A stretch of DNA of 64,000 nt from Dokdonella fugitiva (lineage in GTDB: Bacteria > Pseudomonadota > Gammaproteobacteria > Xanthomonadales > Rhodanobacteraceae): positions 938,525 through 1,002,524 of the forward strand of contig NZ_JACGXL010000001.1 of the NCBI RefSeq assembly GCF_014138265.1, written 5' to 3'. Below are positions 11,977-62,050 of this stretch, piece after piece. The notes below the pieces were generated by a model. That model ran no database searches. It had not been told where the DNA came from and saw only the letters and a program-made list of their open reading frames with translations. The position numbers and the translations under genes were made by a program. Each line of letters starts with the position of its first letter. Position 1 is the stretch's first letter.

Positions 11977-12645
11977 TCGACGGGCACACGTCCAGGTTGC
12001 ACAGGCGCAGGTCCACGGTGAACGCCCGCCCGCCGCACCTGCAGTCGCGCACGCATCGGCATGAATCCGCGCACGCCTGCCGTCCATGCGTGCACGAAAA
12101 GGATCGACACGCGCACCACGCCCATCGACCCTCGCACGCATGGCGTGGACGCGTGCACGCCTCACCTTGAACGCGTCGACGCCCGGCATCCGCTCGCGCA
12201 CGAAAATCATGGACCGTCGAACGAAAACCTTGGACTGCTGCACCACGGTGGTGCACGCGCGAATGCCGGAGTTGCATGCGTCAACGAAAAAGATGCAGCG
12301 ATGCAGGCCCGGCACTCGACCTTTCCAAGCCCGGAGGTGCAACGGTGCAACTCGGACCTTCATCGTTCCAACCCGACCTTGCTCGCATGCAACTCGATCC
12401 TTGGCGCGTGCATGTTTTTCGTGGACGCATGCATGCCCGGCGCTCGACGGGTCGATACCCGCGGCTTGGCACGCCGACCAAATCCGTGCACGCGTGCAAG
12501 GTTTTCGTGGACGCGTCCATGCCGGGCGGCCGTGGCTGCACCAGCGTGGTGCATCGCTGCAATTCCGACCTCGCGTGTCGATGCGGGCCGTGCGCGATCG
12601 CAACCCGGGCGGTGGCGCATGCAAGTCTGACCTTGGCGCGCCATG
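11977..12645. repeat. Array 1 of degenerate 21-bp palindromic repeats (about 32 units)
   Basis: Units begin at 11977, 11998, 12019, 12040, 12062, 12083, 12104, 12125, 12146, 12168, 12189, 12210 and so on to 12633. Each has a 12-bp imperfect inverted repeat of form T-S-S-A-c-g-c-g-T-S-S-A, followed by a 9-bp spacer that is often A-rich (CGAAAA) or CCGG-containing. Perfect palindromes include TGCACGCGTGCA at 12487 and TGGACGCGTCCA at 12508. Steps are 21 bp except for six of 22 bp. Almost every unit keeps the outer T and A while inner bases vary. No gene is supported in either strand here. Confidence 0.85.
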
Positions 12646-12912
12646 GTGCGACCTGCATGAGTGGGACCAGCGTCGGCGGCCTCTCCGGCATTCGCGTGGA
12701 CCCGTGCCGGCAGCTATACGACGTCCCGGTGACATCCGCATCCGCCAGCCGGGTGGCACGCCCATATCTCGGCCCCCCCCTTGCCGGGCAGCGCCGAAAC
12801 AGCTGCTCAGCGGGGCAAGCGGACTCTCAACGCCCCGCGGGGGATTCAAACGGATAATTCCTCCGTCCCCTTCGTTCACCGTACGCGCGTCGCGGCACGG
12901 TCGACCACACGC

Positions 12913-13059
12913 AGTACGAAACCGTTCAACCTGCCGACCCTGCCAGGCCTCGCCGCGCGCGATGGCGCGCTGCAGACGAACGGATTCCCGCCGATGGGTG
13001 ACCTCACGGCGGCGCTGGATCTGCGGCCGGACGAGATCTTCGGCAACGGCTTCGAATGA
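12913..13059 (+). pseudogene. C-terminal remnant of a GFE-tailed secreted protein
   Basis: After array 1 and a stretch without features (12646-12912, including a run of nine cytosines near 12775), one frame reads about 48 residues ending DLRPDEIFGNGFE and a stop at 13057-13059. The ending matches the tail of the secreted proteins nearby, but no signal peptide, start site or domain precedes it. The simplest reading is the 3' end of a lost gene; a short intact gene is less likely. Confidence 0.5.
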
Positions 13060-13188
13060 CGGATGCGGGCCTGCGCGCGCGGAGGTCGCGCACAGGCCCA
13101 CGGTGCGGCAGCCGCTTCGTCGACGTCGACACCCGGATCGCCGCGGATCCGGCGTATTGGCGGGTACGACCCACGAAGCGAGCCCGCC

Positions 13189-14265
13189 ATGCCCACCGCC
13201 ACTGCCGCACCACCGCGCCTGCCGCGTCGCATCGCCCTGTCGACGCTCGCGCTCCTGGCCGCCGGAACCGCCCATGCGCACGTGTTCTGCGCGACGAGCG
13301 CCGCGCAACTGCAGCAGGCCTTGACCGCGGCCTCCGACGGCGGCCCGTACAACGGCGAGGACAACGAGGTCGACCTCGCGCCCGGCACCTACACGACCGG
13401 CGCCGCGACGTCGAACGGCGCGTTCCACTACAGGTCCACGGCCGTCACCGGCCTGATCTCGATACATGGCGGCTTCGACGCGAACTGCCAGAACCCGCGC
13501 TCTAATCCCGCGCGCGCGAAGCTCGACGGCAACGGCCAGACGCCCGTGCTCGCGATCGTCAACGCGCACGCACCGATCGAGGTGCTCGAACTCACCGTGC
13601 AGAACGGCGAGTCGATCGGCAACGGCGCCGGCCTCTCGCTCAGTGGCGGCGCCGGCATCGCGGTGCTGTTCACCGTGATCAAGAACAACCACACGACCGG
13701 CCTCGGCGGCGGCTTCTCGATCCACGCCGACGGCCTCGCCACCAGCGACTACGTGTTCCTCGAAACCAACCTCGTCACCGGCAACAGCGCCGACCAGGAC
13801 TTCGGCGCGGGCTCGATTACCACCGACGCCGCCGTCGTCGCGGTCACCCACGACACCGTCTACGGCAACACGACGCTCGGCATGGGCGACTCGACCGGCA
13901 CGGGCGGCCTGTTCCTCAGCGCCGAATCCGGCTATCTCAGCAACAACATCTTCCGCGCCAACACGCTCTACGGCTTCTACCTCGACAGCGTCGACATCTT
14001 CGTCAACGCGAACTGGAACGCGTACGGCAGCAGCGGTGGCCGCCCGCCGGCGTCGGCCACCGACAATACGAACGCCCCACCGAACTTCGTCGATCCCGCG
14101 GGCGGCGACTTCCACCTGTCGGGCACCTCGCCGTTGCTCGCGTATTCGCGCTCGATCGTCGGCCGCTACCTCGACCTCGAGGGGCACAGCCTGCCCTCGG
14201 GCGGGCGGCGCGATATCGGCGTCTATGCGGACACGGTGTTCGCGGATGCGTTCGATGATGGCTGA
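13189..14265 (+). CDS. Secreted beta-helix protein with degenerate GFE-type tail
   Basis: A 358-residue protein; the start at 13189 opens a signal peptide (about residues 1-30, ending AHAH). A segment like that of polymorphic outer-membrane and choice-of-anchor proteins follows (FCATSAAQLQQALTAAS). After it come parallel beta-helix turns (NNHTTGLGGGF, TNLVTGNSA, SNNIFRANT), a C-terminal RRDIGVYAD and the ending TVFADAFDDG. The tail is like that of other secreted proteins here but has A for the conserved G. Only a weak ribosome binding site is present. It sits between a tagged-gene remnant and array 2, which begins 40 bp after its stop. Related in layout to the gene at 34756. Confidence 0.8.
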   Translation: MPTATAAPPRLPRRIALSTLALLAAGTAHAHVFCATSAAQLQQALTAASDGGPYNGEDNEVDLAPGTYTTGAATSNGAFHYRSTAVTGLISIHGGFDANCQNPRSNPARAKLDGNGQTPVLAIVNAHAPIEVLELTVQNGESIGNGAGLSLSGGAGIAVLFTVIKNNHTTGLGGGFSIHADGLATSDYVFLETNLVTGNSADQDFGAGSITTDAAVVAVTHDTVYGNTTLGMGDSTGTGGLFLSAESGYLSNNIFRANTLYGFYLDSVDIFVNANWNAYGSSGGRPPASATDNTNAPPNFVDPAGGDFHLSGTSPLLAYSRSIVGRYLDLEGHSLPSGGRRDIGVYADTVFADAFDDG

Positions 14266-14305
14266 GTGGCGGCAGGGCCGGCGGGCCACGGGTGTACCTC
14301 GACCG

Positions 14306-14889
14306 TCGATTCGCGCGCACGGGCGATCGGCGCGCCGACACCGCGGATGGGTGCTCGATTGAAGACCATCGACGCGTCCATGATTTCTCTCCGCGTGCGC
14401 ACGCAAGACCTGGGGCGCCTGCACGCCTCCGCTTGAGTACATCACCGCCGGACCTCGGCTCGCGAGCAAAAACTTGGGCTCGCGAAGCAACTACTTGGAC
14501 CCGCGAACGGAATACTTGGGCCACTGCACCGCATTCGTGCGCGCGCGAACGCCGGACGTGCGTGCGCGAAGGTCGCACCCTTCGCTGCCCGGCGAAAAGA
14601 TGCAGCGTCGCAAGGTTTGGGTTCGGCGTTTTCGAGGTTGGACTTGCATCGACGCACGTCCGAGCTTCGTCGGCCCAACACGGACCTGCTCGCACGCAAC
14701 CCGGAGCTTGGCGCGTCCACGTTTTAGCTCGGCGCGTGCAAGTTCGGGGTTCGGCAAGTCGAAGCCTGGAGTTCGGCGAGCCAAGGAAAAATGTGGACGC
14801 GTGCAAGTATTCGGTTGGCGCGTCCAAGTTTGGCGGTCACGGCTGCACTGTCGTTGTGCATCGGTCCTTGCCCGTCATTCGTGCGTCGA
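14306..14889. repeat. Array 2 of degenerate 21-bp palindromic repeats (about 28 units)
   Basis: Units begin near 14306, 14327, 14348, 14369, 14390, 14411, 14455, 14475, 14496, 14517, 14538, 14559 and continue to 14878. The core is the same as in array 1: TCGGCGCGCCGA at 14327, TCGACGCGTCCA at 14369, TTGGCGCGTCCA at 14708 and 14815, TGGACGCGTGCA at 14794. A few steps are 20 or 22 bp. The array fills the gap between the convergent genes ending at 14265 and 14955. No coding gene is supported within it. Confidence 0.85.
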
Positions 14890-14954
14890 TGCGAACTGTT
14901 GTCCAACAAGGCTAGGCCATCGGCAGGCATGTTCGCGCCATCGTCGCTCGACGA

Positions 14955-15422
14955 TCAAGCGGCACATTTGGCGTACGCGTCCGCGGCCACGTCCCAGCGC
15001 CCTGCATCGCTGCTTTCGTGAAATCTGTCGTCCAGTACGGTAAATGGATTCCACTCTGCTCGGTTGCGATCTTCCTGCGCCGACAAACGCTCGAGCCTGA
15101 TCGAGCGTTCTCGAGGGTACGGTGCACCGAAATAAGTCATCGCTTCGGAAAGCAAAGTCGACCACTCGAGCAAGCCGATGGCACGGAAACCCTCGGCGGC
15201 CTCGGGAGCCAGCAAACCCGTCGTGTTGTGGAAGAACTGGTGAAAGCCTCCATTGTCCACCTCCGACCGACACCAATGGGCGGCGTACACAAGAAGCACT
15301 TTCGGGGCGACCGCCTGCGAAGCCCGCAGGAAATCGTCGAGGTTATCCCAGCTTTGGTTCAGCGCCGTCCACGACGGTTCGATCAGCGACCAATAGACAT
15401 CGCCCGGCTCGACGTGCAGCAT
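14955..15422 (-). CDS. DMP19/DUF4375-domain protein
   Basis: A 155-residue cytoplasmic protein. The central part (residues about 45-100) matches the DUF4375 (DMP19-like) pattern: a CRSEVDNGGFHQFFHNTTG segment followed by an alpha-helical region with APEAAEGFRAIG. Family members are small helical proteins, often single genes next to immunity or toxin loci, with no established enzymatic role; DMP19 of Neisseria is a DNA mimic. No ribosome binding site is strong. The gene is divergent from the amidohydrolase at 15521 and converges on array 2. Confidence 0.75.
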   Translation of the reverse strand: MLHVEPGDVYWSLIEPSWTALNQSWDNLDDFLRASQAVAPKVLLVYAAHWCRSEVDNGGFHQFFHNTTGLLAPEAAEGFRAIGLLEWSTLLSEAMTYFGAPYPRERSIRLERLSAQEDRNRAEWNPFTVLDDRFHESSDAGRWDVAADAYAKCAA

Positions 15423-15520
15423 CGATGCATTCCATCATCGCGATGACGGCAACGTAGCACGCCGTCGCGACCCACGGCATTCGGCTTTAGACTGGAACCT
15501 GTTCTCCTGGGGGAAGCTTC

Positions 15521-16822
15521 ATGCAGCGACTTATCGCGTTGTTTGCGGGTCTTGCAGTGACGACGGCCGTGCAGGCCACCAACGATCGCACTGCCCCGCC
15601 GGTCACGACGGCCCTCAAAGCCGCCCATCTGTTCGACGGCCGCACCGGCACCCTCGCCTCCCCCGGCCTCGTCGTCGTCAAGGGCGACCACATCGTCGCG
15701 GTCGGCAAGGATGCGGCGATTCCGGCGGATGCGAAGGTCGTCGATCTCGGCGACGCGACGCTCGTGCCCGGGTTCATCGATGCGCATACGCACCTGACGA
15801 TGGATCACGACGACAACTGGGAGAAGGCGTTCTACGAGAACACCTTGCGCTCGTCGGTGGAGCAGTCGTACCACGCGGAAGCGAATGCGCGCGCGACCTT
15901 GCGCGCGGGGGTGACGACGGTGCGCGATGTCGGCGGCGGCGACTTTATCGACGTCGCGCTGCGCAACGCGATCCGCGACGGGCTCGCGGAGGGGCCGACG
16001 ATCGTCGCGGCGGGGCATGCGATCGGGTCGACCGGCGGGCATTGCGACAGCTCGCCGGCGCCGCCGGACCGGCTGCGCCCGTCGGGCACGATGGAGGGCG
16101 TGTGCAATGGGCCGGAGTCGTGCCGGCTCGCCGTGCGCGAGCAGATGAAGTACGGCGCGGACGTGATCAAGATCTGCGCGTCGGGCGGCGTGCTGTCGGA
16201 GTCCGATCCGGTCGACGTGCCGCAGCTCACGCCGGACGAGTTGCGCGCAATCATGAGCGAGGCACATGCGTGGCGGCGCAAGGTCGCGGCGCATTCGCAC
16301 GGCGACCTCGCCGCGAAGCAGGCGATCGAGGCCGGCATCGATTCGATCGAGCACGGCAGCTTCCTCACGCCGCCGACCTTGCAGCTCATGAAGCAGAAAG
16401 GCGTGTACCTCGTGCCGACGCGCATGACGCAGATCTGGGTGAACAAGAAGGCCGATACGTATCCGCCGAAGATCGCGGGCAAGGCGCGCGCGGCGTACGC
16501 GGCGCACGGCGAGATGATGAAGAACGCGCTGAAGATCGGCGTGCCGATCGCGTTCGGCACGGATGCGGCGGTGTATCCGCATGGGATGAACGCGGAGGAG
16601 TTCGGCGATTACGTCGACCTCGGCATGTCGCCGGCGGCGGCGTTGATGACGAGCAGCCAGGGGGCGGCGAAGCTGCTTGGGGTCGATGGCGACAGCGGAA
16701 CGCTCGAAGCGGGCAAGTTCGCCGACATCGTCGCGGTGCCGGGCGACGTGCTCGCGAACATCCGTGCGACCGAGCATCCGCTGATGGTGATGAAGCACGG
16801 GAAGACGGTGCGGATGGATTGA
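15521..16822 (+). CDS. Secreted metal-dependent amidohydrolase (Xaa-Pro/imidazolonepropionase-like)
   Basis: A 433-residue protein with a signal peptide (residues 1-19, AVQA). The TIM-barrel amidohydrolase core shows H89-T-H91 in GFIDAHTH, the candidate carbamylated lysine in ADVIKICASGG, later histidines in AHSHGDLA and IEHGSF, and the catalytic aspartate in FGTDAAVYPHG. This is the PF01979 group with a binuclear metal site; several relatives hydrolyse dipeptides with C-terminal proline or basic residues. GGGGGA precedes the ATG by 7 bp. Periplasmic action is inferred from the signal. The downstream 535 bp holds only repeats. Confidence 0.88.
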   Translation: MQRLIALFAGLAVTTAVQATNDRTAPPVTTALKAAHLFDGRTGTLASPGLVVVKGDHIVAVGKDAAIPADAKVVDLGDATLVPGFIDAHTHLTMDHDDNWEKAFYENTLRSSVEQSYHAEANARATLRAGVTTVRDVGGGDFIDVALRNAIRDGLAEGPTIVAAGHAIGSTGGHCDSSPAPPDRLRPSGTMEGVCNGPESCRLAVREQMKYGADVIKICASGGVLSESDPVDVPQLTPDELRAIMSEAHAWRRKVAAHSHGDLAAKQAIEAGIDSIEHGSFLTPPTLQLMKQKGVYLVPTRMTQIWVNKKADTYPPKIAGKARAAYAAHGEMMKNALKIGVPIAFGTDAAVYPHGMNAEEFGDYVDLGMSPAAALMTSSQGAAKLLGVDGDSGTLEAGKFADIVAVPGDVLANIRATEHPLMVMKHGKTVRMD

Positions 16823-16833
16823 GCCGGCTTTCG

Positions 16834-17346
16834 CCTCTCCCGCTCGCGGGAGAGGCCGACGCGCGCGGCGCGGCGGGTGAGGGAAAGGCGGAGCGCACGG
16901 TTGCCGGCGCAAGGCTTCGCTCCGAGTGCCCTCACCCTGCCCTCTCCCGCAAGCGGGAGAGGGGAACAGCGACACCGCGTAGGGTGGGACGAAGCGCGCG
17001 AGGCGTTGCGGGTTTGCCGAGCGTTCGGGCGCGAGTCCCATCGGTTGCGTGCAGGGCGAGGCATCGACGCAGGAGCATCGCGGCTTCCGCCGCTCCCACA
17101 ACAGAGCGTAGGGTGGGACGCAGCGCGCGATACGGCGCGAGTTTTGCGGAATGTTCAATCGCGAGTCCCACCGTGGTGGTCGCGCGAAAATGATGGCGGT
17201 GGGACTCGCCGCTTTGCGGCTGCGTCCCACCCTACGAGTCGCCTGTTGCCGGCTCGGCGCAGGAGCATCGCGGCTTCGCCGCTCCCACAACAGCTTCGAT
17301 CGCCTTGCCCCGACCCTCTCCCGCACGCGGGAGAGGGTCGGGGAGG
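16834..17346. repeat. Cluster of CTCTCCCGC hairpins and GTAGGGTGGGAC repeats
   Basis: This gap without genes is built of two repeat families. A long CTCTCCCGC/GCGGGAGAG unit spans 16834-16963 and a short one 17323-17338. GTAGGGTGGGACG units with GCGAGTCCCA partners lie at about 16979-17043, 17107-17171 and (reverse) 17198-17237. The remaining bases show a partial third element (GCAGGAGCATCGCGGC, twice). All can form hairpins and could end transcription of the flanking convergent genes. Confidence 0.8.
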
Positions 17347-17356
17347 CAATCGCAGA

Positions 17357-17827
17357 TCAGTGCGCCGCCGCCTTGGTGGGCGCCCGGTAGTTCCCGCCGA
17401 TCGTGCGCGCAGCGACGTTGATGCGGTTCCAGCTGTTGATCGTCACGGTGAGCAGGGTGAGGTCGACGATCTCGGCTTCGCTGAACACCTTCGTCGCCTT
17501 GTCGTACAGCGCGTCGGAAACGGGCTCGGCGCCGGCGAGTTCGGTGAGTTCCTCGGCCCACTGCAGCGCGACCTGCTCGCGTTCGCTGTAGAGCTTGGTC
17601 TCGCGCCACGCGGGCAGCAGGTACAGGCGCTGTTCGGTCTCGCCGGCGGCGCGCGCGTCCTTGCTGTGCATGTCGAGGCAGAACGCGCAGCCGTTGATCT
17701 GCGACACGCGCATGAGGACCAGCAGGATCAGCGGCTGTTCGAGGCGACCGGCATCGTGGATGCTCTTGCCGAGATCGATCAGCGGCTGCATCGACGGGTA
17801 ATGACGCTGGAGGGAAAAGCGGGTCAT
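17357..17827 (-). CDS. Carboxymuconolactone decarboxylase/AhpD-like protein (ECF41 partner)
   Basis: A 156-residue protein with the alkylhydroperoxidase active-site motif: CAFCLDMHSKDAR, a CxxC followed by histidine. The surrounding helices (VLMRVSQINGCAFCLDMH, LTVTINSWNRIN) are typical of the CMD/AhpD family, which form small helical oligomers with redox-active cysteines. AAGGAG lies upstream of the start. It begins 41 bp after the stop of the sigma-factor gene on the same strand, so they form an operon. In the ECF41 group, a carboxymuconolactone decarboxylase, oxidoreductase or epimerase next to the sigma gene is the standard arrangement and its regulatory target. The physiological substrate is unknown. 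Confidence 0.9.
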   Translation of the reverse strand: MTRFSLQRHYPSMQPLIDLGKSIHDAGRLEQPLILLVLMRVSQINGCAFCLDMHSKDARAAGETEQRLYLLPAWRETKLYSEREQVALQWAEELTELAGAEPVSDALYDKATKVFSEAEIVDLTLLTVTINSWNRINVAARTIGGNYRAPTKAAAH

Positions 17828-17868
17828 GGAAGGCTCCTTGGCACTGCGTGCGGCCGGGATCGGCCGCT

Positions 17869-18762
17869 TCAATGCAAGGACGTGGACGCGGCCGGTTTCG
17901 TGACCGCGTGGATGCGCGCGAGTTTTTCCGGATGGCGCAATGCGTGGATCGCGGTGATGCGATCCCCTTCGCACTCGATCCACATCGCGGTCGCGAGCGT
18001 GTCGCCGTCGTACATGAACAGCGCGGGCGCGCCGTTGAGTTCGGCGAACGCGTAGCGTGCGCCGGCGACGTTGCGCGCGATCTGCAGGTACAGGCGCGCG
18101 AGCCGATCGGCGCCGTGCAGCGGATGCAGGGTCGCGCTGGCGAGGCCGCCGCCGTCGCTGACGTGCACTGCGTCTTCGGCGAACAAGGCGCGCAAGGTGT
18201 CGATGCGCGGCTCGGCCATCGCCGCGACGAAGCGTTCGAGCAGGCGTTGCTGCGCCGCGCCGTCGACATGGAAGCGCGGCCGCCCTTCGCGCAGGCGCGC
18301 CTTCGCGCGGTGCACGCGCTGGCGGCACGCGTCTTCGGCGATCCCGAGGATCGCCGCGGCCTCGGCGTGGCTGTAGTCGAACACGTCGTGCAGCAGGAAC
18401 GCCGCGCGCTCCTCCGGGCTCAGGCGTTCGAGCAGGAGCAGGAACGACAAAGTCAGCGACTCGCCGCGTTCGAGCGTCGCATCGGGCGATTCCGCCTCGT
18501 CCGACAGCGGCTCGGGCAACCACGGCCCGACGTACTGCTCGCGCTCGGCCTTCGCGCGGCGCAGGCGATCGAGCGCGAGGCGCGTCGTCACGGTGACGAG
18601 CCAGGCCTCGGGATCATCGAGCGTCGCGAGATCCTGCGCGTGCAGGCGCAGCCAGGCTTCGTGCACGACGTCCTCGGCATCCGCGGGCGTGCCGAGCATG
18701 CGGTAGGCGAGCCCGAACAGGCGCGAACGGTGGGTTTCGAACAGGGTGGTTGCGGCATCCAC
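17869..18762 (-). CDS. sigJ: ECF41-group RNA polymerase sigma factor (SigJ type) with SnoaL-like C-terminal domain
   Basis: A 297-residue protein starting at GTG with CGGAG upstream. Sigma region 2 is at about residues 11-75, region 4 at 105-160, and a SnoaL/NTF2-like extension at about 168-290. Diagnostic ECF41 motifs are present: WLPEP (81-85) in the linker and DGGG (203-206) in the C-terminal domain, followed near the end by a RHPEKL segment like the conserved NPDKL. In this group there is no anti-sigma factor; the C-terminal extension controls activity. The gene precedes the CMD-family partner, and an ECF41-type promoter lies just upstream at 18791-18817, suggesting autoregulation. Confidence 0.93.
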   Translation of the reverse strand: MDAATTLFETHRSRLFGLAYRMLGTPADAEDVVHEAWLRLHAQDLATLDDPEAWLVTVTTRLALDRLRRAKAEREQYVGPWLPEPLSDEAESPDATLERGESLTLSFLLLLERLSPEERAAFLLHDVFDYSHAEAAAILGIAEDACRQRVHRAKARLREGRPRFHVDGAAQQRLLERFVAAMAEPRIDTLRALFAEDAVHVSDGGGLASATLHPLHGADRLARLYLQIARNVAGARYAFAELNGAPALFMYDGDTLATAMWIECEGDRITAIHALRHPEKLARIHAVTKPAASTSLH

Positions 18763-18790
18763 GGGCGTATTCTCCGTCAGTCGATGCCAG

Positions 18791-18817
18791 GACGCACGGG
18801 CGTGCGCAAACGTGACA
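18791..18817 (-). promoter_or_regulatory. ECF41-type promoter of the sigJ operon
   Basis: On the minus strand, TGTCACG (-35) is followed after 16 bp by CGTC (-10), ending 29 bp before the GTG start. This is the arrangement known for ECF41 target promoters (TGTCACA, 16-bp spacer, CGTC). Confidence 0.75.
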
Positions 18818-18849
18818 GCCCCGGCCGCGCGCGAACCGACGCGATGTCG

Positions 18850-19148
18850 CCTCTCCCGCTTGCGGGAGAGGCCGACGCGCGCAGCGCGGCGGGTGAGGGA
18901 ATGCGGAGCGGATCGGGACAGGAGCGCGAAACGCGGCAAGTACTTGGACGGACGCCGCGCTTCGATCGCCCTCACCCTGCCCTCTCCCACACGTGGGAGA
19001 GGGGAACAACGGGGCGCGCTGCTGCGCGCCCCCGTTACGGGTCTATGCGGAGCGGAGCGGGTGAGCAGCGCGAAACGCGGCAAGTACTTGTACGGACGCC
19101 GCGCTCCGATGGCCCTCACCCTGCCCTCTCCCGCAAGCGGGAGAGGGA
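18850..19148. repeat. CTCTCCCGC-family repeat, full copy plus partial tandem copy
   Basis: A full copy runs from the CTCTCCCGC/GCGGGAGAG hairpin at 18850 to the partner hairpin ending at 19004. The second half is repeated at about 19041-19148 (sharing CGAAACGCGGCAAGTACTTG and the CCCTCACCCTGCCCTCTCCC end). No gene lies in 18818-19252. Confidence 0.8.
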
Positions 19149-19252
19149 AAAAGCGTGACGATCGCGACTCGATCCGCAGGCAGGCCAGCGCGAACCGCCC
19201 CAGCCGGGGCCGGGACGGTCCGCATCCATCGCGCGGGATCACCCGCGCCGGG

Positions 19253-21301: not shown

Positions 21302-21724
21302 GGTCGTGCTCCGGTTGTCGTCGGTTGAACAATGGCCGGGACGAACCCGGCCGCTCTCTCCTCCCGACGATCGCTCTCTCCCGATCGCGGGCAATGCGAA
21401 ACCGCGGCAGGTGCCTGGCGCACCTGCGGTGAAGGCATCACGGAAAGGCCGCGCGCGCGGGAAGCGGCGCGACTCGGGTCAGGCGACGGTTGCGGTGTGG
21501 CTCATGTCGATCACCCCATGCCGTTGTCGGTCGGACGTGTCACGAGCAATGCGGACCCGCCGCCGCAGGCGCGACGGCGGTACCGCAAGCGGCGGGACGG
21601 TGCGTGCGATGTCGCTGCACCGTCGGGCCGCGTGGATCGATCGCGGCAGCCCTCGGCATCGATGTGCCGCAGCCGCCGTGGACGCAGGTCGCCTGCGTCA
21701 CCCCGCGTGAAGCCTGCTCGCGCA

Positions 21725-52885: not shown

Positions 52886-52907
52886 ACGACATCAGGGAGC
52901 TCACGGC

Positions 52908-53168
52908 ATGAGCGACGACGGCGGACTCTGGTTGCTCGCGCTCGGCCCGGCCGGCGCCACCGGCCTGTACTGGGCGCTGTACCGCTACTACCGCAACACC
53001 GACAAATCGCACGCGTTCGAGCGCGAGACCAAGGTCGACGCGAAACCCGTGACGGGCTCGGACGCCAAGGTCGACGAAGTCATCGGCACGCGCGAGACGC
53101 GCATCCGCGGCGACAACGTGAAGTCGTATCGCGCACGCGTGCAGCGCATCCGCGGCAACACGTCGTAG
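52908..53168 (+). CDS. Small membrane protein of the SPFH operon
   Basis: An 86-residue protein with AGGGAG upstream. One transmembrane helix near the N-terminus (about 6-25, WLLALGPAGATGLYWALYRY) is followed by a charged cytoplasmic tail (KVDEVIGTRETRIRGD, KSYRARVQRIRG). It starts 22 bp after the zinc-ribbon gene on the same strand and belongs to that operon. Presumably a membrane partner of the SPFH and zinc-ribbon proteins. Confidence 0.8.
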   Translation: MSDDGGLWLLALGPAGATGLYWALYRYYRNTDKSHAFERETKVDAKPVTGSDAKVDEVIGTRETRIRGDNVKSYRARVQRIRGNTS

Positions 53169-53205
53169 GGTGGTTCGAGTCCGCCTTGGTCGCGGCCATG
53201 ACGTT

Positions 53206-53281
53206 GTAGGAGCGCACCCTGTGCGCGACCGCGGCATCGAACGTTCCCGCGACGCCGGTCGCGCACAGGGTGCGCTCCTAC
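53206..53281. repeat. GTAG-type palindromic repeat (copy 4 of 7)
   Basis: GTAGGAGCGCACCCTGTGCG to CGCACAGGGTGCGCTCCTAC, with ACGTTCCCGCGACGCC in the centre. It is 37 bp past the small membrane protein gene; likely terminator. Confidence 0.85.
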
Positions 53282-53366
53282 AAGACCGTCGTCGCGTATC
53301 GCCTTGTCCTGGCCGTCCTTCGCGTCGCGGCCTTCGCGCCTGCAGAACCAGCCCCGACGCGATGTC

Positions 53367-53442
53367 GTAGGAGCGCACCCTGCGCGCGACCGCGGCATCC
53401 AACGTTGCCGCTACACCGGTCGCGCACAGGGTGCGCTCCTAC
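53367..53442. repeat. GTAG-type palindromic repeat (copy 5 of 7)
   Basis: GTAGGAGCGCACCCTGCGCG to CGCACAGGGTGCGCTCCTAC. The short hairpin GGTGGGCTCGCGCCCACC follows at about 53450, before the stop of the CSLREA gene. No gene lies in 53169-53476. Confidence 0.85.
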
Positions 53443-53476
53443 AAAATATGGGTGGGCTCGCGCCCACCCGCTACGA

Positions 53477-55726: not shown

Positions 55727-55932
55727 GGTGCGTCCTTTCCTTCCAGGTAGTGAGCGTTCGCGGGCGTTTCGCCCGCGTCCCCCACCGAGCGCCCTTGCCG
55801 TGGGGCCGCCCATGAGGAGGGTTCTGTACGCTGGTACGAAAAAGGACCCGGGTTACAGACAGACGGGGATCGGCGCGGGTTTGCAGGGGGTCGGGGGCAG
55901 CCAGCTGGCGCCTTGGATCGAAGCCCTGCGTC

Positions 55933-56003
55933 GCAGGAGCGCACCCTGTGCGCGACCAGCCGCTCCACGCTCCGCACAGGTCGCCCACAGGGTGGGCTCC
56001 TAC
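55933..56003. repeat. GTAG-type palindromic repeat (copy 6 of 7), divergent
   Basis: GCAGGAGCGCACCCTGTGCG to CCCACAGGGTGGGCTCCTAC. Its centre differs from other copies. GGTGGGCTCGAGCCCACC-like hairpins follow at 56011-56077. Confidence 0.7.
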
Positions 56004-56121
56004 ACGAGGAACGTGGGTGCGCTCGAGCCCACCTTCGATACGATGGCGGACGACAGCGGTGGGCCAGAGCCCACCCTACAGGCTCCTTGTAGAAGCGCAT
56101 CGCAGGCGTAGCAGCGCCCTC

Positions 56122-56260
56122 GCCTCTCCCGCTCGCGGGAGAGGCCGCCGCGCGCAGCGCGGCGGGTGAGGGAAAACGGAGCGCCGCACCGCGCGTGAAA
56201 CAACGCCTGCGTTCGCTCCGATCGCCCTCACCCCAACCCTCTCCCGCAGGCGGGAGAGGG
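56122..56260. repeat. CTCTCCCGC-family repeat
   Basis: A full copy between CTCTCCCGCTCGCGGGAGAG and CTCTCCCGCAGGCGGGAGAG. With the GTAG and GTGGGCTC repeats before it, it fills the 694-bp gap between the CSLREA gene and the DUF1801 gene; nothing else is seen there. Confidence 0.8.
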
Positions 56261-56420
56261 AGCACCGCACTGCGCGTCGAAGGAACGACGCGCCCACCGC
56301 ATCGCAACACCCAGTCGATTTTCGCCCTTCCCGTTCGTCGTAACCCATGAAGACCCGATCAACGCGCACGAATGCCGCAGCCGCGCGACGTGCTGCGCCC
56401 ACCTCGCACGGAGTGACGAC

Positions 56421-56927
56421 GTGATCCGCAAAGCCGACAAACCCGCCACGCCCGCTCGGAAGCCTGCCACCCAGGCGGCGACGAAACCCGTCGCCGCGGC
56501 TACGCCGCTGCCGGAAACCCTCAACGGCAAAGCCAGCCCCGCCAAGGCCGCCGTCGGCGACAAGCCGGTGTTCGCCTACATCGCGAGCCTGCCGCAACCG
56601 CAGCGCGGCATCGCCGAACGCGTCGACGCGCTCGCGGCCAAGACGCTGCCCGGCCTGGAGCGCAGCGTGAAGTGGGGCATGGCGTACTACGGTGTCGGCG
56701 ACGGCTGGTGCTTCTGCTGCGGCGCCTTCGCGAGCCACGTGAAACTCATGTTCGTCAACGGCGTGACGCTCGACCCGGTACCGCCCGTGACGCCGGTGGC
56801 GATGGGCAAGGCGACGCGCGGCGTCGAACTCGCCTCCGTCGACGCCATCGACGAACGGCAGATCGCGGCGTGGATGAAGCAGATCACGGCGATGCCCGGC
56901 GTCGGCAAGCGTCCGCAAAAGCCATGA
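56421..56927 (+). CDS. DUF1801-domain protein with basic N-terminal extension
   Basis: A 168-residue protein starting GTG with CGGAG upstream. Residues 1-45 are an alanine/lysine/proline-rich extension (RKADKPATPARKPATQAATK), similar to histone-like tails. The DUF1801 domain follows (VFAYIASLPQPQRGIAERVD, LERSVKWGMAYYG, VKLMFVNGVTLDPVPP, WMKQITAMPG). Cytoplasmic, function unknown; a basic tail suggests nucleic-acid association but this is speculative. It converges on the ABM gene. Confidence 0.82.
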   Translation: MIRKADKPATPARKPATQAATKPVAAATPLPETLNGKASPAKAAVGDKPVFAYIASLPQPQRGIAERVDALAAKTLPGLERSVKWGMAYYGVGDGWCFCCGAFASHVKLMFVNGVTLDPVPPVTPVAMGKATRGVELASVDAIDERQIAAWMKQITAMPGVGKRPQKP

Positions 56928-56987
56928 CGCGCGCTCGGCGACGATCGCTGCCGTGCCCTGCCCGAGGGTCGGTGCCGCCGCGCACGA

Positions 56988-57308
56988 TCACGGCGCGGCG
57001 AAGGTCTCGCGCCAGAACGTGAAATCGGCGGCGCCGTCGAGGAATTCCTGCGCCTGGGCGAAGAACGCCTGCTGATGCGGCGTCTGCATGTGCGGCCCGG
57101 TGAACGCTTCGACGCTGTCCCACTGCTCGATGATCAGCAGGCGGCAGGGATCGTCGGCAGAGGCGTGCACGCGGATGCCGTGGCATGCCGGTTCCTTCGC
57201 GATCACGACAGGGATGACGGCCTCGAGCGCAGCGCGCGCGCGGTCGAGCTTGTCGGGCTTGATCCGGCCGGTGATGACGACGGTGACGGCGTCGGCGTGT
57301 CCGTTCAT
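56988..57308 (-). CDS. ABM-domain protein
   Basis: A 106-residue protein of the antibiotic-biosynthesis-monooxygenase fold: VTVVITGRIKPDKLDRARAA, IRVHASADDPCRLLIIEQWD and HQQAFFAQAQEFL. It starts with MNGHADAV at 57308. No good ribosome binding site. Function as for the copy at 32131 is unknown; the two differ in sequence. It ends 61 bp before the DUF1801 gene's stop in convergent orientation. The next gene upstream is an esterase. Confidence 0.85.
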   Translation of the reverse strand: MNGHADAVTVVITGRIKPDKLDRARAALEAVIPVVIAKEPACHGIRVHASADDPCRLLIIEQWDSVEAFTGPHMQTPHQQAFFAQAQEFLDGAADFTFWRETFAAP

Positions 57309-57381
57309 GCAGTGGCCTCGCCATGGGCAACGTGCGGGGATCGCACGATGCCATCGCATGCGCGGTCGCGCGAGTGCGCGA

Positions 57382-58512
57382 TCATGTCGCCGGCTTCGCC
57401 GACGCCAGTGTCGCGTCGAACAGGTCGATCGCCTCGCGGATCGCCGCGTCGTGGGTCGCGCGTCGCGCCACGGTCGAACGGCACAGCTCGATGCGCGCCT
57501 CGCCCGCGGGCGTGCACTCGGCGAGGAAGTCGTAGTGCGCGACGCCGGGCAGCATCGTGAGCCGCGCGTGCGGCACCGTCTCTGCGGCGACGCGCGCATT
57601 CGTCGCGGGCGGCGCGACGACGTCGGCATCGCCCACGATGATGCGCACGGGCACGCCGATCGCGCGCAGGCTGTCCGGCGTGAAACCCTGCACGATCGCC
57701 GGCGCCATCGCGAACACGGCTTTCACGCCCGGGATGGCGAGATCCCTCGTCGACGCGGCCACCGCGCGCTGCGTCGGCTCCTGCGCACGGAAGGCCGCGA
57801 TCGCGGCAGGGTCGGTGGCGAATTCCTTCTGCGGCCTGCACACGCCATCGTCCGGATGCGCGGCGCAGAACGCATCGAGGTGCGGCACCGACACACGGCC
57901 GCCGGCGGTCGCGAGCGCGGTGAAGCCGCCCGCGGAGAAACCCGCCGCGCCGATGCGCGACGCATCCAGATGCGGTCCGATCGCAGGGTCCTGACGCACG
58001 CGCGCGAGCGCGACCGCGAGATCGCCGGGGCGCTGCCAGAAGTAGTTCGCCCCGGCCATCGTGATCGGGTCGATCGCGTTGTTGCCGGGATGGTCGGGCG
58101 CGACGACGACGTAGCCGGCGCGCGCGAGCGCCGTGCCGAACCACGCCATCACGCGCGCCGATCCGCCGAAGCCGTGCGAGAGCAGGACGACGGCACGGCG
58201 CGTGCCGTCCGCGAACGGCGCATCCTGCGCGGACGAGCCCGCGACGAACAGCGGCTGGCCCGGCGGGCCGATCGTCAGCGGCGTTTCCTTGTTTCCATCC
58301 GCGGCGGGATACCAGACCGTGACGCGCAGGTCGGCCCTGTGCTCGGCATCGCGTTCCCGCGCGGTCGGTTGCTCGGCGACGAGGTGGCGTTCGCCGGCGA
58401 TGAACGCGAACGCCGTGGGCGATGCGACGGTGATCGACAGCATTGCGATCGACGCCGACAGCGCGAGCACGCGACGACGCCAGCATGACAACGACGGGAC
58501 TCGCTTCGACAC
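57382..58512 (-). CDS. Secreted alpha/beta hydrolase (PAF-acetylhydrolase/dienelactone-hydrolase-like)
   Basis: A 376-residue protein starting at GTG with AGAGG upstream and an N-terminal signal (about 1-32, ending AFA). The sequence TVWYPAADGNKETPL is typical of the predicted dienelactone hydrolase/PAF-AH group. The nucleophile is in GFSAGGF, the HGFGGS turn gives the oxyanion, IVGDADVVAPP the acid and GVAHYDFLAE the histidine. Extracytoplasmic esterase. It follows the AraC-type regulator on the same strand (14 bp), so it may be controlled by it. Confidence 0.86.
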   Translation of the reverse strand: MSKRVPSLSCWRRRVLALSASIAMLSITVASPTAFAFIAGERHLVAEQPTARERDAEHRADLRVTVWYPAADGNKETPLTIGPPGQPLFVAGSSAQDAPFADGTRRAVVLLSHGFGGSARVMAWFGTALARAGYVVVAPDHPGNNAIDPITMAGANYFWQRPGDLAVALARVRQDPAIGPHLDASRIGAAGFSAGGFTALATAGGRVSVPHLDAFCAAHPDDGVCRPQKEFATDPAAIAAFRAQEPTQRAVAASTRDLAIPGVKAVFAMAPAIVQGFTPDSLRAIGVPVRIIVGDADVVAPPATNARVAAETVPHARLTMLPGVAHYDFLAECTPAGEARIELCRSTVARRATHDAAIREAIDLFDATLASAKPAT

Positions 58513-58526
58513 GGACACCCTCTTCG

Positions 58527-59390
58527 CTACGCCGATACCGGCACGTGATAGTCGACGACGCTGCCGCGCTCGCCCGGGCGGAAGCGCGCGTCGTAGTACT
58601 CGAAATCCGGCGCCTCGATCGCTTCGAGACCCGACGCCGGCAACCGCTCCGCCCACACCGCCTCGTTCGCCGCGAGGATCTGCGGATGCACGGGGCCGGC
58701 GTCGAGCGTCATGCGGAACACGACGTAGGTGTTCGCCGCGATGCGCAACGAGCGGAGATCGGCGACCGCGTCGAGGCCGTCCACCGGCGGCATGCCGGCC
58801 ATGTATTCGAACGCACCGTTCGCCGGATCCGGATCGAAGATGACGCCGTAGGCGCCGCGCGGACGACCGAACGCGGCCGTCCGTTCGGCGAACCGCTCCC
58901 ACAAGCCGGGGATCGCGAGCTGCGTGTCGTCCTCGAAGCGGTGCTGCAGGCCGAACAGCGTGAACGCATCGCGCTCCACGAGCCCGGGCAGGCGTTCGAC
59001 GTTCACCGCGACCGGCGCGCGGCGCGCGCGAACCGGCGCGGGCATCGTCGTGCCGTAAGCGAACTTCATGCGACCCGGCGTCGTGCCGAACAGACGCTGG
59101 AACGCGCGGATGAACGCCTCCTGCGACTCGAAGCCGCTGTCGAACGCGAGGTCCGTCAAGCCGATCGACGGATCGTCGGCCAGCCGGCGCGCGGCGCGCA
59201 CGAGGCGCAGGTTGCGCACGTGCGCCATCACGCTGCGACCGGTGCGCGCGGTGAACAGGCGCGAGAAGTAGAAACTCGACAAGCCCGCGTGCGCCGCGAT
59301 GCGGTCGAGCGTCAGCGCATCATCGAGATGCGCCTCGATCCACGCCAGCGTGGTCGCGATATCCGGGGCGGTGGTGGATCGGCTCGGCAT
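58527..59390 (-). CDS. AraC-family regulator with C-terminal GyrI-like domain
   Basis: A 287-residue regulator. The N-terminal AraC HTH pair covers about residues 12-110 (IEAHLDDALTLDRIAAHAGL, SSFYFSRLFTARTG and DLAFDSGFESQEAFIRAF). The C-terminal part (about 125-285) is a GyrI-like/effector-binding domain (VAVNVERLPGLVERDAFTLF, YGVIFDPDPANGAFEYMAG, FEYYDARF). This order is that of Rob/SoxS-like drug- or stress-responsive regulators. The start at 59390 is the first ATG without a good ribosome binding site. The esterase downstream is a likely target, and autoregulation is possible. Confidence 0.9.
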   Translation of the reverse strand: MPSRSTTAPDIATTLAWIEAHLDDALTLDRIAAHAGLSSFYFSRLFTARTGRSVMAHVRNLRLVRAARRLADDPSIGLTDLAFDSGFESQEAFIRAFQRLFGTTPGRMKFAYGTTMPAPVRARRAPVAVNVERLPGLVERDAFTLFGLQHRFEDDTQLAIPGLWERFAERTAAFGRPRGAYGVIFDPDPANGAFEYMAGMPPVDGLDAVADLRSLRIAANTYVVFRMTLDAGPVHPQILAANEAVWAERLPASGLEAIEAPDFEYYDARFRPGERGSVVDYHVPVSA

Positions 59391-59484
59391 CGCAGGAGTG
59401 TTCCACGTCCGACGCAACCTGTCCTGACCGATCTTGCCCTCGGGGAGTGGGCGCGGCGGCGTTCAAGCGCCACGGCGTCCAGCG

Positions 59485-59509
59485 CGTAGGGTGGGCTCAA
59501 GCCCACCTC
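59485..59509. repeat. GTAGGGTGGGCTC hairpin repeat
   Basis: GTAGGGTGGGCTCAAGCCCACC forms a short stable hairpin, the same family as the sequences near 53450 and 56011-56077. It lies at the 3' end of the degenerate remnant described next. Confidence 0.65.
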
Positions 59510-59515
59510 CGGTGC

Positions 59516-59650
59516 CTGGCGGATCCCGTAGTACTCGCCATGGGCCCGCACACGGCCTTTGCTCTGCTGTACATGGATGCGCACGTCGTCGCCGCACCGT
59601 ATCCGAGGTCCGGCTTGCGCCGAAATCCCCACGGCCAACCGGGTACCGAT
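59516..59650 (-). pseudogene. Degraded relative of the 62070 gene
   Basis: On the minus strand one frame reads DDVRIHVQQSKGRVRAHGEY, matching the C-terminal part of the 62070 product (RDVGVRIHLQQSKG). Upstream of it the match continues only in other frames, and no start or complete frame exists. The fragment is thus a frame-broken remnant. Confidence is limited by its shortness. Confidence 0.45.
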
Positions 59651-59739
59651 GGCTTCCGTTCCTGACACCGCTGTCGGCGCATACTGCGATGGCCGAAGCA
59701 ACCACCCCGGTTGCGCGATGGACACGAGAGGAGCCGCAC

Positions 59740-59856
59740 ATGAGCAAGGGCATGAACCAGAAGAAGCAGGAAAAGAAGAAGCCGGCCAAGACGATGAAGG
59801 AAAAGAAGGCCGAGAAGAAGGAAAAGAAGACGACCAAGGGCTTCGCACCCGCCTGA
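59740..59856 (+). CDS. Small lysine-rich protein
   Basis: A 38-residue ORF with a strong ribosome binding site (GAGAGGAG) 6 bp before the ATG. Nearly half the residues are lysine (MNQKKQEKKKPAKTMKEKKA, then EKKEKKTTKGF). Short proteins of this composition are conserved in related bacteria and may bind nucleic acids or act as small cytoplasmic peptides. The strong ribosome binding site supports that it is a real gene. It is followed directly by CTCTCCCGC repeats. Function unknown. Confidence 0.72.
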   Translation: MSKGMNQKKQEKKKPAKTMKEKKAEKKEKKTTKGFAPA

Positions 59857-59877
59857 CGGCGCCGGCCCCCGCCATCG

Positions 59878-60119
59878 CCTCTCCCGCTCGCGGGAGAGGC
59901 CGACGCGCGCAGCGCGGCGGTTGAGGGAAAATCGGAGCGCGGCATTGCTCGCGAACGACGCCAGCGCCTCGCTCCGAACCCCTCACCCCAACCCTCTCCC
60001 GCAAGCGGGAGAGGGGGCACTACCAGCGGCGTCGAACGATTTCGCCTCTCCCGCGAACGACGCCAGCACCTCGCTCCGAACCCCCTCACCCCAGCCCTCT
60101 ACCGCAAGCGGGAGAGGGG
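59878..60119. repeat. CTCTCCCGC-family repeats, one full and one rearranged copy
   Basis: A full copy (59878-60017) is followed by a shortened one (60041-60119), both ending in GCAAGCGGGAGAGGG. They fill the gap between the lysine-rich protein and the membrane protein gene ending at 60121. Confidence 0.8.
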
Positions 60120-60120
60120 C

Positions 60121-60825
60121 TTAACGAGCCTGCTCGCCGTCCTTGAGCTTCATCGCGTTGCCGAGCACGGCTTCGAACGTCTGCACCCGCAGGCGCAAAG
60201 CGGATGCGATCACGCCGATGCCCCACAGCACGCACAGGAACAAGCCCACGATCACCAGCCAGAGCGGCGTCGCTTGCACGTCGTTCCAGTTGCGCAAGGC
60301 GATGAAGGCAGCGATCGCCGCCGGCAGGATGCCGAGCTTGTCCGCGCCACCGCCCAGGAAGCCGAGCTTCGCCTGCAGCGTCGCCTGCATGTACTGCGCG
60401 AAGCGCAGGTGATCGGCGATGGCGGCCTGCGGGTACGTCGCCAGCCAGCGCGAGAGCTCCGCCATCACGGCACGATCATGATCCATCTGTTCGATCGCGG
60501 ATGACCTGAAATGGCGGAACGCCAGCAGCATGATCCGCAGCGATCGCAGGAACGGGAGTGCCAACGCGCAACCCATGGCGATGACCCCGCCACGCGCCAT
60601 TGCGGCCATCCAAGGCTGCGGTGCCCATATCAGCACGAACAGGGACGGCAGCACGGCGACCACCGCCGCACCCGCACCCATCGCATACAGGAACGTGACC
60701 CAGCCCGGCGTCTCGAACGCCAATAGCGGCCCTTCCGGCATCGCCTTGATGCGCGCCTCGATCGCCGCGAAGCTGAGCGGCGGTGCCGGCCGCCCTTCCA
60801 TGGTGGGAATATCCGTTGATTGCAT
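60121..60825 (-). CDS. Four-helix membrane protein of unknown function
   Basis: A 234-residue protein with about four transmembrane helices (about 43-66, 76-95, 155-172 and 185-207). The central cytoplasmic part (MDHDRAVMAELSRWLATYP, ADHLRFAQYMQATLQ) is helical. No family is recognised. Starts at 60825; the ATG at 60801 is an alternative. It begins just after a GTAG palindrome (60886-60959). Confidence 0.7.
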   Translation of the reverse strand: MQSTDIPTMEGRPAPPLSFAAIEARIKAMPEGPLLAFETPGWVTFLYAMGAGAAVVAVLPSLFVLIWAPQPWMAAMARGGVIAMGCALALPFLRSLRIMLLAFRHFRSSAIEQMDHDRAVMAELSRWLATYPQAAIADHLRFAQYMQATLQAKLGFLGGGADKLGILPAAIAAFIALRNWNDVQATPLWLVIVGLFLCVLWGIGVIASALRLRVQTFEAVLGNAMKLKDGEQAR

Positions 60826-60885
60826 AATGGACAAGGATAAATCGGAACGCCGCCGCCCGCGATCCCGAGGCGCGGCACGGTTTTC

Positions 60886-60959
60886 GTAGGAGCGCACCCT
60901 GTGCGCGACCGCGCCATCGAACCTTGTCGCTACACCGGTCGCCCACAGGGTGGGCTACA
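60886..60959. repeat. GTAG-type palindromic repeat (copy 7 of 7)
   Basis: GTAGGAGCGCACCCTGTGCG to CCCACAGGGTGGGCTAC, slightly shortened on the right. It lies between the divergent membrane-protein gene and the gene at 61093. Confidence 0.8.
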
Positions 60960-61092
60960 ACAATCGCGCTCCGTCGCGCAGCGTCTCAGCCTGTGCGACC
61001 CGCATCGGTTCTCATACCCCTCGTGCCGCGAGGCACGGCCCGACCGCCATAGGGGCGCCGGGCGAAGTCCACTCCACGAGGAGAAGTCCTGT

Positions 61093-61560
61093 ATGACGCA
61101 AGCCACTGTTTCGCTGTCCTTCACCGATGCCCAGCTCACCGCGATCGATGCGGCCCTGTCCGAGCTGGAGACCCAATTCGCCGGGCTCATCGGCCTCACC
61201 AACGACGAGCGCCGCGCGCTCATGAAGATGGGCAGCAAGTCCGAGACGTTCTGCCGGCAGACGATGTCCCTGCTCGCGCAAAACCCGCAGCTCGTGCCCG
61301 CCAGCGTGCCGCTGGCCACATCCCAGCAGTTGCTGGGTGCGATGGACCAGCTGCGCCCGCGCATGCAGCGGCTGCAGCGGCTCGGCGAACGCGTCGTCGA
61401 CACGGACATGGCCGCGGGTGCGGTCGTCATGCGCACCGCGCTGCAGGGCTATGCGCTCCTCAAGGTGTCCGGCAAGAACCAGGGCCTGGAAGGCCTGCGC
61501 GAAACCGTCGGCGAGCGCTTCGCGCGCAAGCCGCGCGTGACGGAGGCGAAGGCGGCCTGA
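61093..61560 (+). CDS. Conserved helical protein of unknown function
   Basis: A 155-residue helical protein with GAGGAGAA upstream of the ATG. Conserved pieces are FAGLIGLTNDERRALMKMGS, KSETFCRQTMSLLAQNPQLV and a C-terminal helical region. Similar proteins occur widely in bacteria as single genes with no assigned function. A rho-independent terminator follows its stop, and array 3 begins about 165 bp after it. Confidence 0.8.
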   Translation: MTQATVSLSFTDAQLTAIDAALSELETQFAGLIGLTNDERRALMKMGSKSETFCRQTMSLLAQNPQLVPASVPLATSQQLLGAMDQLRPRMQRLQRLGERVVDTDMAAGAVVMRTALQGYALLKVSGKNQGLEGLRETVGERFARKPRVTEAKAA

Positions 61561-61595
61561 CCACCCCGCCCTTCCCTTCCTGATGGGAGCAACGA

Positions 61596-61617
61596 AGCCG
61601 CAGCGATGCGGCTTTTT
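61596..61617 (+). terminator. Rho-independent terminator
   Basis: The stem AGCCGCA/TGCGGCT with a four-base loop is followed by a run of six thymines. It lies 36 bp after the stop of the 61093 gene and would separate it from array 3. Confidence 0.9.
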
Positions 61618-61724
61618 TGTTGCCTGTCGAACGCGGCCCGCCGATCGTTCGCCTTCGATGCAGCCCGCCTGCACGCGCGAGCCGCGACGGCCACCGCGCC
61701 CACCCCGCCCTTCGTCCCGAGCGC

Positions 61725-62050
61725 TCGCGCGCTGACCCCTTACACCGCGAGCGCCACGCTCCGCGCTCGGACCGCCAGGTGTTCTGCTCCGAACGTCGAG
61801 CGCATGGCTCGACGCGCCGAGCGTTCCGCTCGATGCGCCAGCCGTTGCACTCGACGATCCGAGCGATGCGCTCGATCGTCGAAGCGATGTTCTCGGCCAG
61901 CCGAGCGTGGCGCTCGAAGGATCGAGCGCCACGCGTGATATTCCAGGTTCCGCGCTCGACCCATCGAGCGATTTTCCTGAAGCACCGAGCGCTGCGCCTG
62001 ACACCCGAAGATCGGATCTCGACCTTCCGAGTTCTTCGCGAGCTCGCTCG
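61725..62050. repeat. Array 3 of 21-bp palindromic repeats (about 15-16 units, no slips)
   Basis: Units begin at 61725, 61746, 61767, 61788, 61809, 61830, 61851, 61872, 61893, 61914, 61935, 61956, 61977, 61998 and 62019, always exactly 21 bp apart. Cores include TCGACGCGCCGA, TCGATGCGCCAG, TCGACGATCCGA, TCGAAGGATCGA and TCGACCTTCCGA. The 9-bp spacers are themselves palindromic here (GCGTTCCGC, GCGATGCGC, GCGCCACGC), so each period also contains GAGCG-N3-CGCTC. All six frames stay open, but no start or ribosome binding site supports a gene. Confidence 0.85.

What the first reader, a model, noticed from the sequence alone, without database searches (positions are those of the whole stretch)
11977..62050. 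A family of 21-bp (two helical turns) degenerate palindromic repeat arrays in three places
Three intergenic arrays share one unit design: a 12-bp imperfect inverted repeat with framework T..A....T..A, followed by a 9-bp spacer. The step is exactly two helical turns. Arrays 1 and 2 prefer TGGACGCGTCCA or TGCACGCGTGCA; array 3 prefers TCGA-N4-TCGA, but all fit one template. Bases inside the framework vary strongly while outer T and A persist. This suggests a platform for many copies of a dimeric DNA-binding protein on one face of the helix, or a structured RNA. I know of no named family of this form.
Basis: partly seen in the sequence, partly recalled or inferred. Interest (0 to 1): 0.86.

Follow-up and report, generated by a model that had tools for sequence, protein, structure and literature searches.

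The report
Protein gene paired with palindrome array
Strings of short mirror-symmetric DNA repeats, set about two turns of the double helix apart, sit beside copies of one uncharacterised small protein gene in many bacteria, which points to a two-part chromosomal system (protein plus DNA platform) whose function is still unproven.

Summary
In detail: three intergenic arrays with a 21-bp step (about 11977-12640, 14290-14905, 61741-62055), far above shuffled controls. "One template" is only partly right: sequences fall into classes; step and dyad symmetry are shared. At least eight more arrays lie elsewhere in this genome (genus Dokdonella, inferred).

Array 3 lies just downstream of a 155-aa gene ("X", 61093-61560) whose family has no significant match in Pfam, NCBIfam or PDB sequences. 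Of 80 named beta-/gammaproteobacterial X loci, 51 carry an array within 700 bp of X, against 0 of 76 and 2 of 73 control stretches. X was found in 13 of 13 array-bearing genomes tested and 0 of 5 array-negative ones. Palindromes differ from locus to locus (62 of 68 arrays significantly palindromic); palindrome class and array side follow the X tree. Units show no clear compensatory pairing; GU/AC mismatches show no significant strand preference; 29 of 56 downstream arrays lie behind a terminator-like hairpin.

Best reading: an undescribed chromosomal cassette in which dimers, most likely of X, line up on a DNA platform every two helical turns. Binding is inferred, not shown. RNA and pure repeat-dynamics readings remain possible.

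The parts
11977..12640 (.). Array 1: about 32 units, class TGCA/TGGA; not next to an X gene (orphan array)
   Evidence: HMM and Viterbi; no X match nearby in the genome search
14290..14905 (.). Array 2: about 29 units, diverged copy of array 1 in unit order; orphan array
61741..62055 (.). Array 3: about 15 units, class CCGAGC-N5-GCTCGA, every step 21 bp
   Evidence: matches models R2 and R3 by construction
61093..61560 (+). Gene X: 155-aa helical protein of an unnamed family, upstream neighbour of array 3 (stop codon included)
61595..61618 (+). Intrinsic-terminator-like hairpin with T run between X and array 3
   Evidence: read; such hairpins in 29 of 56 downstream arrays, 1 of 56 when shuffled

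Best explanation
The arrays belong to a chromosomal two-part cassette: a gene for a small helical protein (X) and, beside it, an array of imperfect palindromes set 21 bp apart (median 12 full-length units counted per array, among arrays with at least 6). Shown: the physical and phyletic linkage, dyad symmetry, the fixed step, palindromes that differ between loci and follow the X tree, and further arrays elsewhere in the same genome, some of the same class. Inferred: the array works as double-stranded DNA; dimers (most likely of X, perhaps of a partner) bind one unit each on the same face of the helix and co-operate along the array; different X lineages have drifted to different palindromes; orphan arrays of a class are served in trans. 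The likeliest purpose is local chromosome organisation (a compact or bridging nucleoprotein patch, centromere- or BIME-like) rather than control of the X promoter, because X-adjacent arrays are mostly downstream of X and often behind a terminator. Every step from 'the array is bound as DNA' onwards is unproven.
For: Array within 700 bp of X in 51 of 80 named loci against 0 of 76 and 2 of 73 control stretches; signal confined to about 600 bp either side of X; without assuming the period, best lag 21, 42 or 63 in 81 of 113 X loci against 14 of 216 control windows. X in 13 of 13 array-bearing and 0 of 5 R3-negative genomes. 62 of 68 X-adjacent arrays palindromic at p<=0.05. Motif class follows the X tree (18 changes against 36.3 shuffled, 0 of 200 as low) and the 12 tree rows with upstream arrays form one clade, 98/95. 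Linker differs more than half-sites in 8 of 8 related array pairs; profile near-symmetric. No clear compensation; GU 448 against AC 379, sign test p 0.15. Terminator-like hairpin in 29 of 56. Confident helical model with a 52-residue helix and basic tail.
Against: No binding data. X has no recognised DNA-binding domain or fold match. Motifs drift faster than X: at 60-70% X identity only 24% of pairs share a motif. Class 1 and 2 orphan arrays, including arrays 1 and 2 of this window, match no X-adjacent array in this genome (similarity 0.15-0.46). 29 of 80 X loci miss the detector threshold and 20 of 113 show no period. A small excess of paired positions (class 3 z +2.6; 781 units z 1.9). The right half-site, read in the direction of the neighbouring gene, is the more degenerate in 6 of 10 oriented groups and equal in 4, so the units are not fully symmetric. 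Gene orientation around 35 arrays (9 convergent, 20 co-directional, 6 divergent by a home-made gene finder) is close to chance.
Confidence: 0.5

Rival explanations
1. Structured RNA: the array is transcribed into a chain of short hairpins or one long hairpin, and X is its RNA-binding partner.
For: Five arrays fold more stably than dinucleotide shuffles (z -3.1, -4.7, -2.1, -3.6, -5.1). Palindrome sequence changes between loci while symmetry stays. Slight excess of paired positions.
Against: Half-sites do not clearly compensate within units. No significant GU over AC preference on the X strand. A terminator-like hairpin precedes 29 of 56 downstream arrays. No Rfam match. Any palindromic array folds well.
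Confidence: 0.2
2. Repeat dynamics without a binding function: slippage and quasi-palindrome correction create and keep such arrays, and X loci are merely prone places, or X takes part in the process.
For: Gaps of exactly one unit between related arrays, 42- and 63-bp higher periods, sequence drift from locus to locus.
Against: Linker positions change about twice as fast as half-sites (137 of 477 against 131 of 952 inner half-site positions). The 21-bp step is kept over beta- and gammaproteobacteria. CCGAGC palindromes recur in separate X clades. Linkage to one gene family.
Confidence: 0.17
3. REP/RAYT-like system: X mobilises the palindromes as a transposition factor and the orphan arrays are its spread copies.
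For: Same logic of gene plus cognate palindromes that evolve together; paralogous arrays with shared flanks in one genome; X presence tracks arrays.
Against: X shows no transposase match in Pfam, PADLOC or PHROGs. No X on 72,556 plasmid or 50,697 phage records. Array side is inherited with X.
Confidence: 0.08
4. Coding DNA: a seven-residue (21-bp) peptide repeat.
For: 62 of 68 X-adjacent arrays have at least one open frame of six.
Against: 20- and 22-bp steps; open frame differs among orthologues L207, L212 and L215; palindromy; terminator-like hairpins in front. Open frames are expected at 68% G+C.
Confidence: 0.03

Closest known systems
REP/BIME palindromes with RAYT genes (PMC2817692, abstract read)
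   Same: A gene and cognate intergenic palindromes that evolve together, presence of gene and repeats correlated, regularly spaced arrays.
   Different: RAYT is a tyrosine transposase flanked by two REPs, REPs usually exceed 100 copies per genome (abstract); X has no transposase match and its palindromes form tandem arrays with one fixed 21-bp step on one side of the gene.
KfrA and its repetitive operator on plasmid RA3 (PMC7783346, abstract and passages read)
   Same: Helical protein with an array of short repeats beside its own gene; number of repeats matters.
   Different: Five 9-bp repeats overlapping the kfrA promoter, plasmid-borne; here a median of 12 units of 21-bp palindromes, mostly downstream of X, chromosomal.
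F plasmid sopB/sopC and other partition centromeres (recalled)
   Same: Binding-protein gene followed by a tandem array whose step is near a whole number of helical turns.
   Different: Needs a partner NTPase and lies on low-copy replicons; none is evident beside X and X is absent from the plasmid collection.
Iterons of plasmid origins (recalled)
   Same: Repeats of about two helical turns beside a gene for their binding protein.
   Different: Direct repeats at origins; here dyad-symmetric units at several chromosomal places per genome.
TAACTGA direct repeats (PMC4679880, abstract read)
   Same: Intergenic tandem repeats with patchy distribution over distant bacteria.
   Different: One seven-base sequence, in that genome mostly just before start codons; the abstract reports no linked gene family.

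Membership tests
REP/RAYT | Cognate gene is a REP-associated tyrosine transposase | tested here: not met
   Six X members against Pfam up to E 1: no transposase family listed, best E 0.025 to an unrelated family
REP/RAYT | Gene flanked by two inverted REPs | tested here: not met
   Of 80 named loci 50 have an array on one side only and one on both at the threshold used
CRISPR array | Longer repeats separated by unique spacers, with cas genes | tested here: not met
   Step is 21 bp with degenerate units; cas genes were not searched for
Structured RNA family | Match to a described family | tested here: not met
   No match at gathering scores in the window
Structured RNA family | Compensatory base changes in the stems | tested here: not met
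   499 of 500 shuffles pair at least as well (segments chosen by score); class 1 z -1.9, class 2 z -1.7, class 3 z +2.6; 781 units z 1.9
Partition centromere (sopC/parC type) | Array adjoins the gene of its binding protein | tested here: inconclusive
   Array adjoins X but binding by X is not shown
Partition centromere (sopC/parC type) | Partner NTPase gene in the operon | not tested
   Neighbours of 36 arrays were only looked over by eye, partly cut sequences
KfrA | N-terminal helix-turn-helix plus long coiled coil | tested here: inconclusive

The most novel reading that the evidence does not exclude
A previously unrecognised, chromosomally inherited protein-DNA system of beta- and gammaproteobacteria: each X paralogue builds a regular patch or filament on its own array of two-turn-spaced palindromes, the specificity of each pair drifting apart so that several orthogonal pairs coexist in one cell (eight X copies in this genome) and mark or tether separate chromosomal places.
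Probability: 0.35. Interest if true: 0.93.

Novelty: categorically new. Interest (0 to 1): 0.86.

Why it matters
If X binds its array, this gives a natural set of protein and site-array pairs with two-turn geometry, perhaps mutually orthogonal, and a new kind of chromosome-organising element found beside X in Lysobacter, Rhodanobacter, Dokdonella, Pseudoxanthomonas, Zoogloea, Aquabacterium, Ralstonia and others. Even if X does not bind it, a protein family whose gene keeps a palindromic, fixed-step array beside it over such distances while the sequence drifts is unexplained and directly testable. It also gives a first lead on a protein family that the libraries searched here leave unnamed.

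Tried and rejected

Limits. Detector thresholds were set after the first arrays had been seen. The 113 X loci hold some genomes twice (named record and G handle, e.g. L258/L369, L281/L377, L318/L376, L322/L374). The five array-negative genomes were chosen by me and are negative only for model R3. The eight array pairs share sequences. Only the best 80 of 139 related loci were kept. Three of five AlphaFold models score 85-89 and two 66-71. Unit counts leave out arrays with fewer than 6 full units.

Full report
What was checked. The three arrays are real. Lag-21 autocorrelation stands out at each, and a 21-state circular HMM explains them far better than shuffles (243, 177, 149 nats against 36-49). 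Step lengths by Viterbi are 21 in 24 of 31, 19 of 28 and 14 of 14 steps; the rest are 20 or 22. The literal framework T..A....T..A is a property of array 1 more than of arrays 2 and 3 (14, 3 and 2 hits). Arrays 1 and 2 are diverged copies of each other; a third array at C5:28.7k (L008) probably belongs with them (weak BLAST, E 0.02; alignment with shared GCACC-N4-GGTGC landmarks).

More arrays. BLAST and alignment-built models found ten arrays in the own genome, window included: C1:611.7k, 950.5k, 953.0k, 1000.3k, C2:545k, C3:453k, C5:28.7k, C5:304.6k, C7:94.6k, C8:300.9k; one more strong and two weaker ones lie beside other X copies. Three sequence classes were seen: TGCA/TGGA (arrays 1, 2, L008), TGCG-CGCA (L011, L056) and CCGAGC-N5-GCTCG(A/G) (array 3, L074, L120-L122), all with a 21-bp step. 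A model of the last class (R3) matches 18 of 233 genomes of the family, 4 of 26 genera, and 21 of 398 of the order, 13 of 98 genera in three families (the ten new loci fetched all pass the detector). In the class search 2 of 369 genomes match, both of the order. The best-conserved form is a 17-bp palindrome CCGAGC-N5-GCTCGG plus a 4-bp linker, its core often A5 or T5.

Constraint. In eight comparisons of related class-3 arrays (not independent), linker positions differ in 137 of 477, inner half-site positions in 131 of 952, core positions in 98 of 598; linker exceeds half-site in 8 of 8. The profile is near-symmetric about the dyad (positions 2/16 0.11/0.09, 3/15 0.14/0.13, 4/14 0.22/0.20, 6/12 0.28/0.25, 1/17 0.23/0.26, but 5/13 0.07/0.14). 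Several gaps are exactly one unit. The half-sites do not clearly compensate each other: 499 of 500 shuffles pair at least as well (segments chosen by score); with units taken without score selection 808 against 792 expected, z 1.6, class 1 z -1.9, class 2 z -1.7, class 3 z +2.6 (1,258 against 1,221); over 781 units of X-adjacent arrays 3,916 against 3,863, z 1.9. GU against AC mismatches on the X strand are 448 and 379 (p 0.15). One asymmetry remains: the right half-site, in the direction of the neighbouring gene, is the more degenerate in 6 of 10 oriented groups and equal in 4. On the whole this is what nearly independent half-sites of a dimer on double-stranded DNA would give, and less what a hairpin under selection would give; the generic folding stability of the arrays as RNA (z -2.1 to -5.1) is noted against it.

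The linked gene. Array 3 follows a 155-aa gene, and homologues adjoin arrays in three genera. A search with that family (A10) in genome contigs kept 80 named loci of 139 relatives. With fixed thresholds 51 of 80 have an array within 700 bp of X, 40 downstream and 12 upstream (one has both); stretches further off gave 0 of 76 and 2 of 73. Without assuming the period, the best lag near X in 113 loci was 21 (29), 42 (33), 63 (19), 43 (7), others (5), none (20); in 216 control windows 14 gave 21, 42 or 63. Over the named loci the signal is confined to about 600 bp on either side of X. X was found in 13 of 13 array-bearing genomes searched (1-8 matches each, some of them fragments) and in 0 of 5 genomes negative for R3. 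In the own genome all 8 X matches are about full length; 5 of 8 have an array within 200 bp by a looser threshold, one at 1.65 kb, two none.

Palindromes locus by locus. 62 of 68 X-adjacent arrays are more palindromic than column permutations of themselves at p<=0.05, 56 at p<=0.01; the consensus differs between most loci. Motif similarity follows X identity (Spearman 0.29; 500 permutations gave at most 0.155), yet at 60-70% X identity only 24% of pairs share a motif. On an X tree of 67 rows the eight larger motif classes need 18 changes against 36.3 shuffled (0 of 200 as low); the CCGAGC class needs at least three changes by well-supported branches; the 12 rows with upstream arrays form one clade (98/95), the other rows have it downstream. 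A distant branch of X in Rhodanobacter also carries arrays. A terminator-like hairpin lies between stop codon and array in 29 of 56 downstream cases, 1 of 56 when shuffled. Median gap 86.5 bp downstream (n 56), 122.5 bp upstream (n 14). Class-3 orphan arrays of the own genome resemble the array beside X at array 3 (similarity 0.74-0.79); class 1 and 2 orphans, arrays 1 and 2 among them, resemble none of the eight X-adjacent stretches (at most 0.46).

Interpretation. The linkage between X and array is the firm result. That the array acts as DNA is favoured by the comparative data. That X is the binder is the simplest reading of shared inheritance but is not shown; the faster drift of motif than of X, and the orphan classes without a matching X array, are real difficulties. 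Chromosome organisation is proposed because X-adjacent arrays are mostly downstream of X and often behind a terminator; gene orientation around 35 arrays (9 convergent, 20 co-directional, 6 divergent) is close to chance and gives no support either way.

Organism. Contig C11 of G001 has the length of the Dokdonella fugitiva A3 record NZ_SLWQ01000011.1 (112,376), and its X (L369) sits at zero branch length beside that of the record (L258), so G001 is taken to be that species and the window's genus Dokdonella. Both are inference.

Novelty. Eight full-text searches of open-access papers found nothing on these arrays or on X. The nearest kinds are REP/RAYT, KfrA operator arrays and plasmid centromeres. 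REP/RAYT fails two tests; the others cannot be decided without binding data. 'Categorically new' therefore rests on the pairing of an unnamed family with fixed-step, locus-specific palindromic arrays, and would fall if a held-back description exists.

Noticed in passing
window 12930-14265: Between arrays 1 and 2 lie a gene (13191-14265 region, secreted beta-helix-like by eye, C-terminus VFADAFDDG) and a short remnant ending IFGNGFE; the gene before array L056 ends IFANGFD and the one before L233 ends IFDDGFDGN, so arrays recur next to genes with this kind of C-terminus.
   Followed up: partly
window 12842-12869 and L056 about 1955-1983: The same 25-30 bp motif (GATTCAAACGGAtAATTCCTCCGTCCC) follows array 1 and array L056; it resembles a mobile-element end (recalled, not tested).
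   Followed up: no
window 12231-12260 and 12541-12566; L008 about 1465-1485 and 1760-1780: Arrays 1 and L008 each hold two longer palindromes of the form GCACC-N4-GGTGC about 300 bp apart, as if landmarks inside the array.
   Followed up: partly
   Followed up: partly
G000:C1:225977, G009, G206, G175, G159, G244: The palindrome CCGAGCTACGTGCTCGG occurs once in each of six genomes, outside the arrays; probably inside a conserved gene, not checked.
   Followed up: no
L396 (G852), L391 and L233 (G050): Some arrays are nearly perfect with 42/43- or 63-bp higher periods (alternating unit types), suggesting recent expansion in multiples of the unit.
   Followed up: partly
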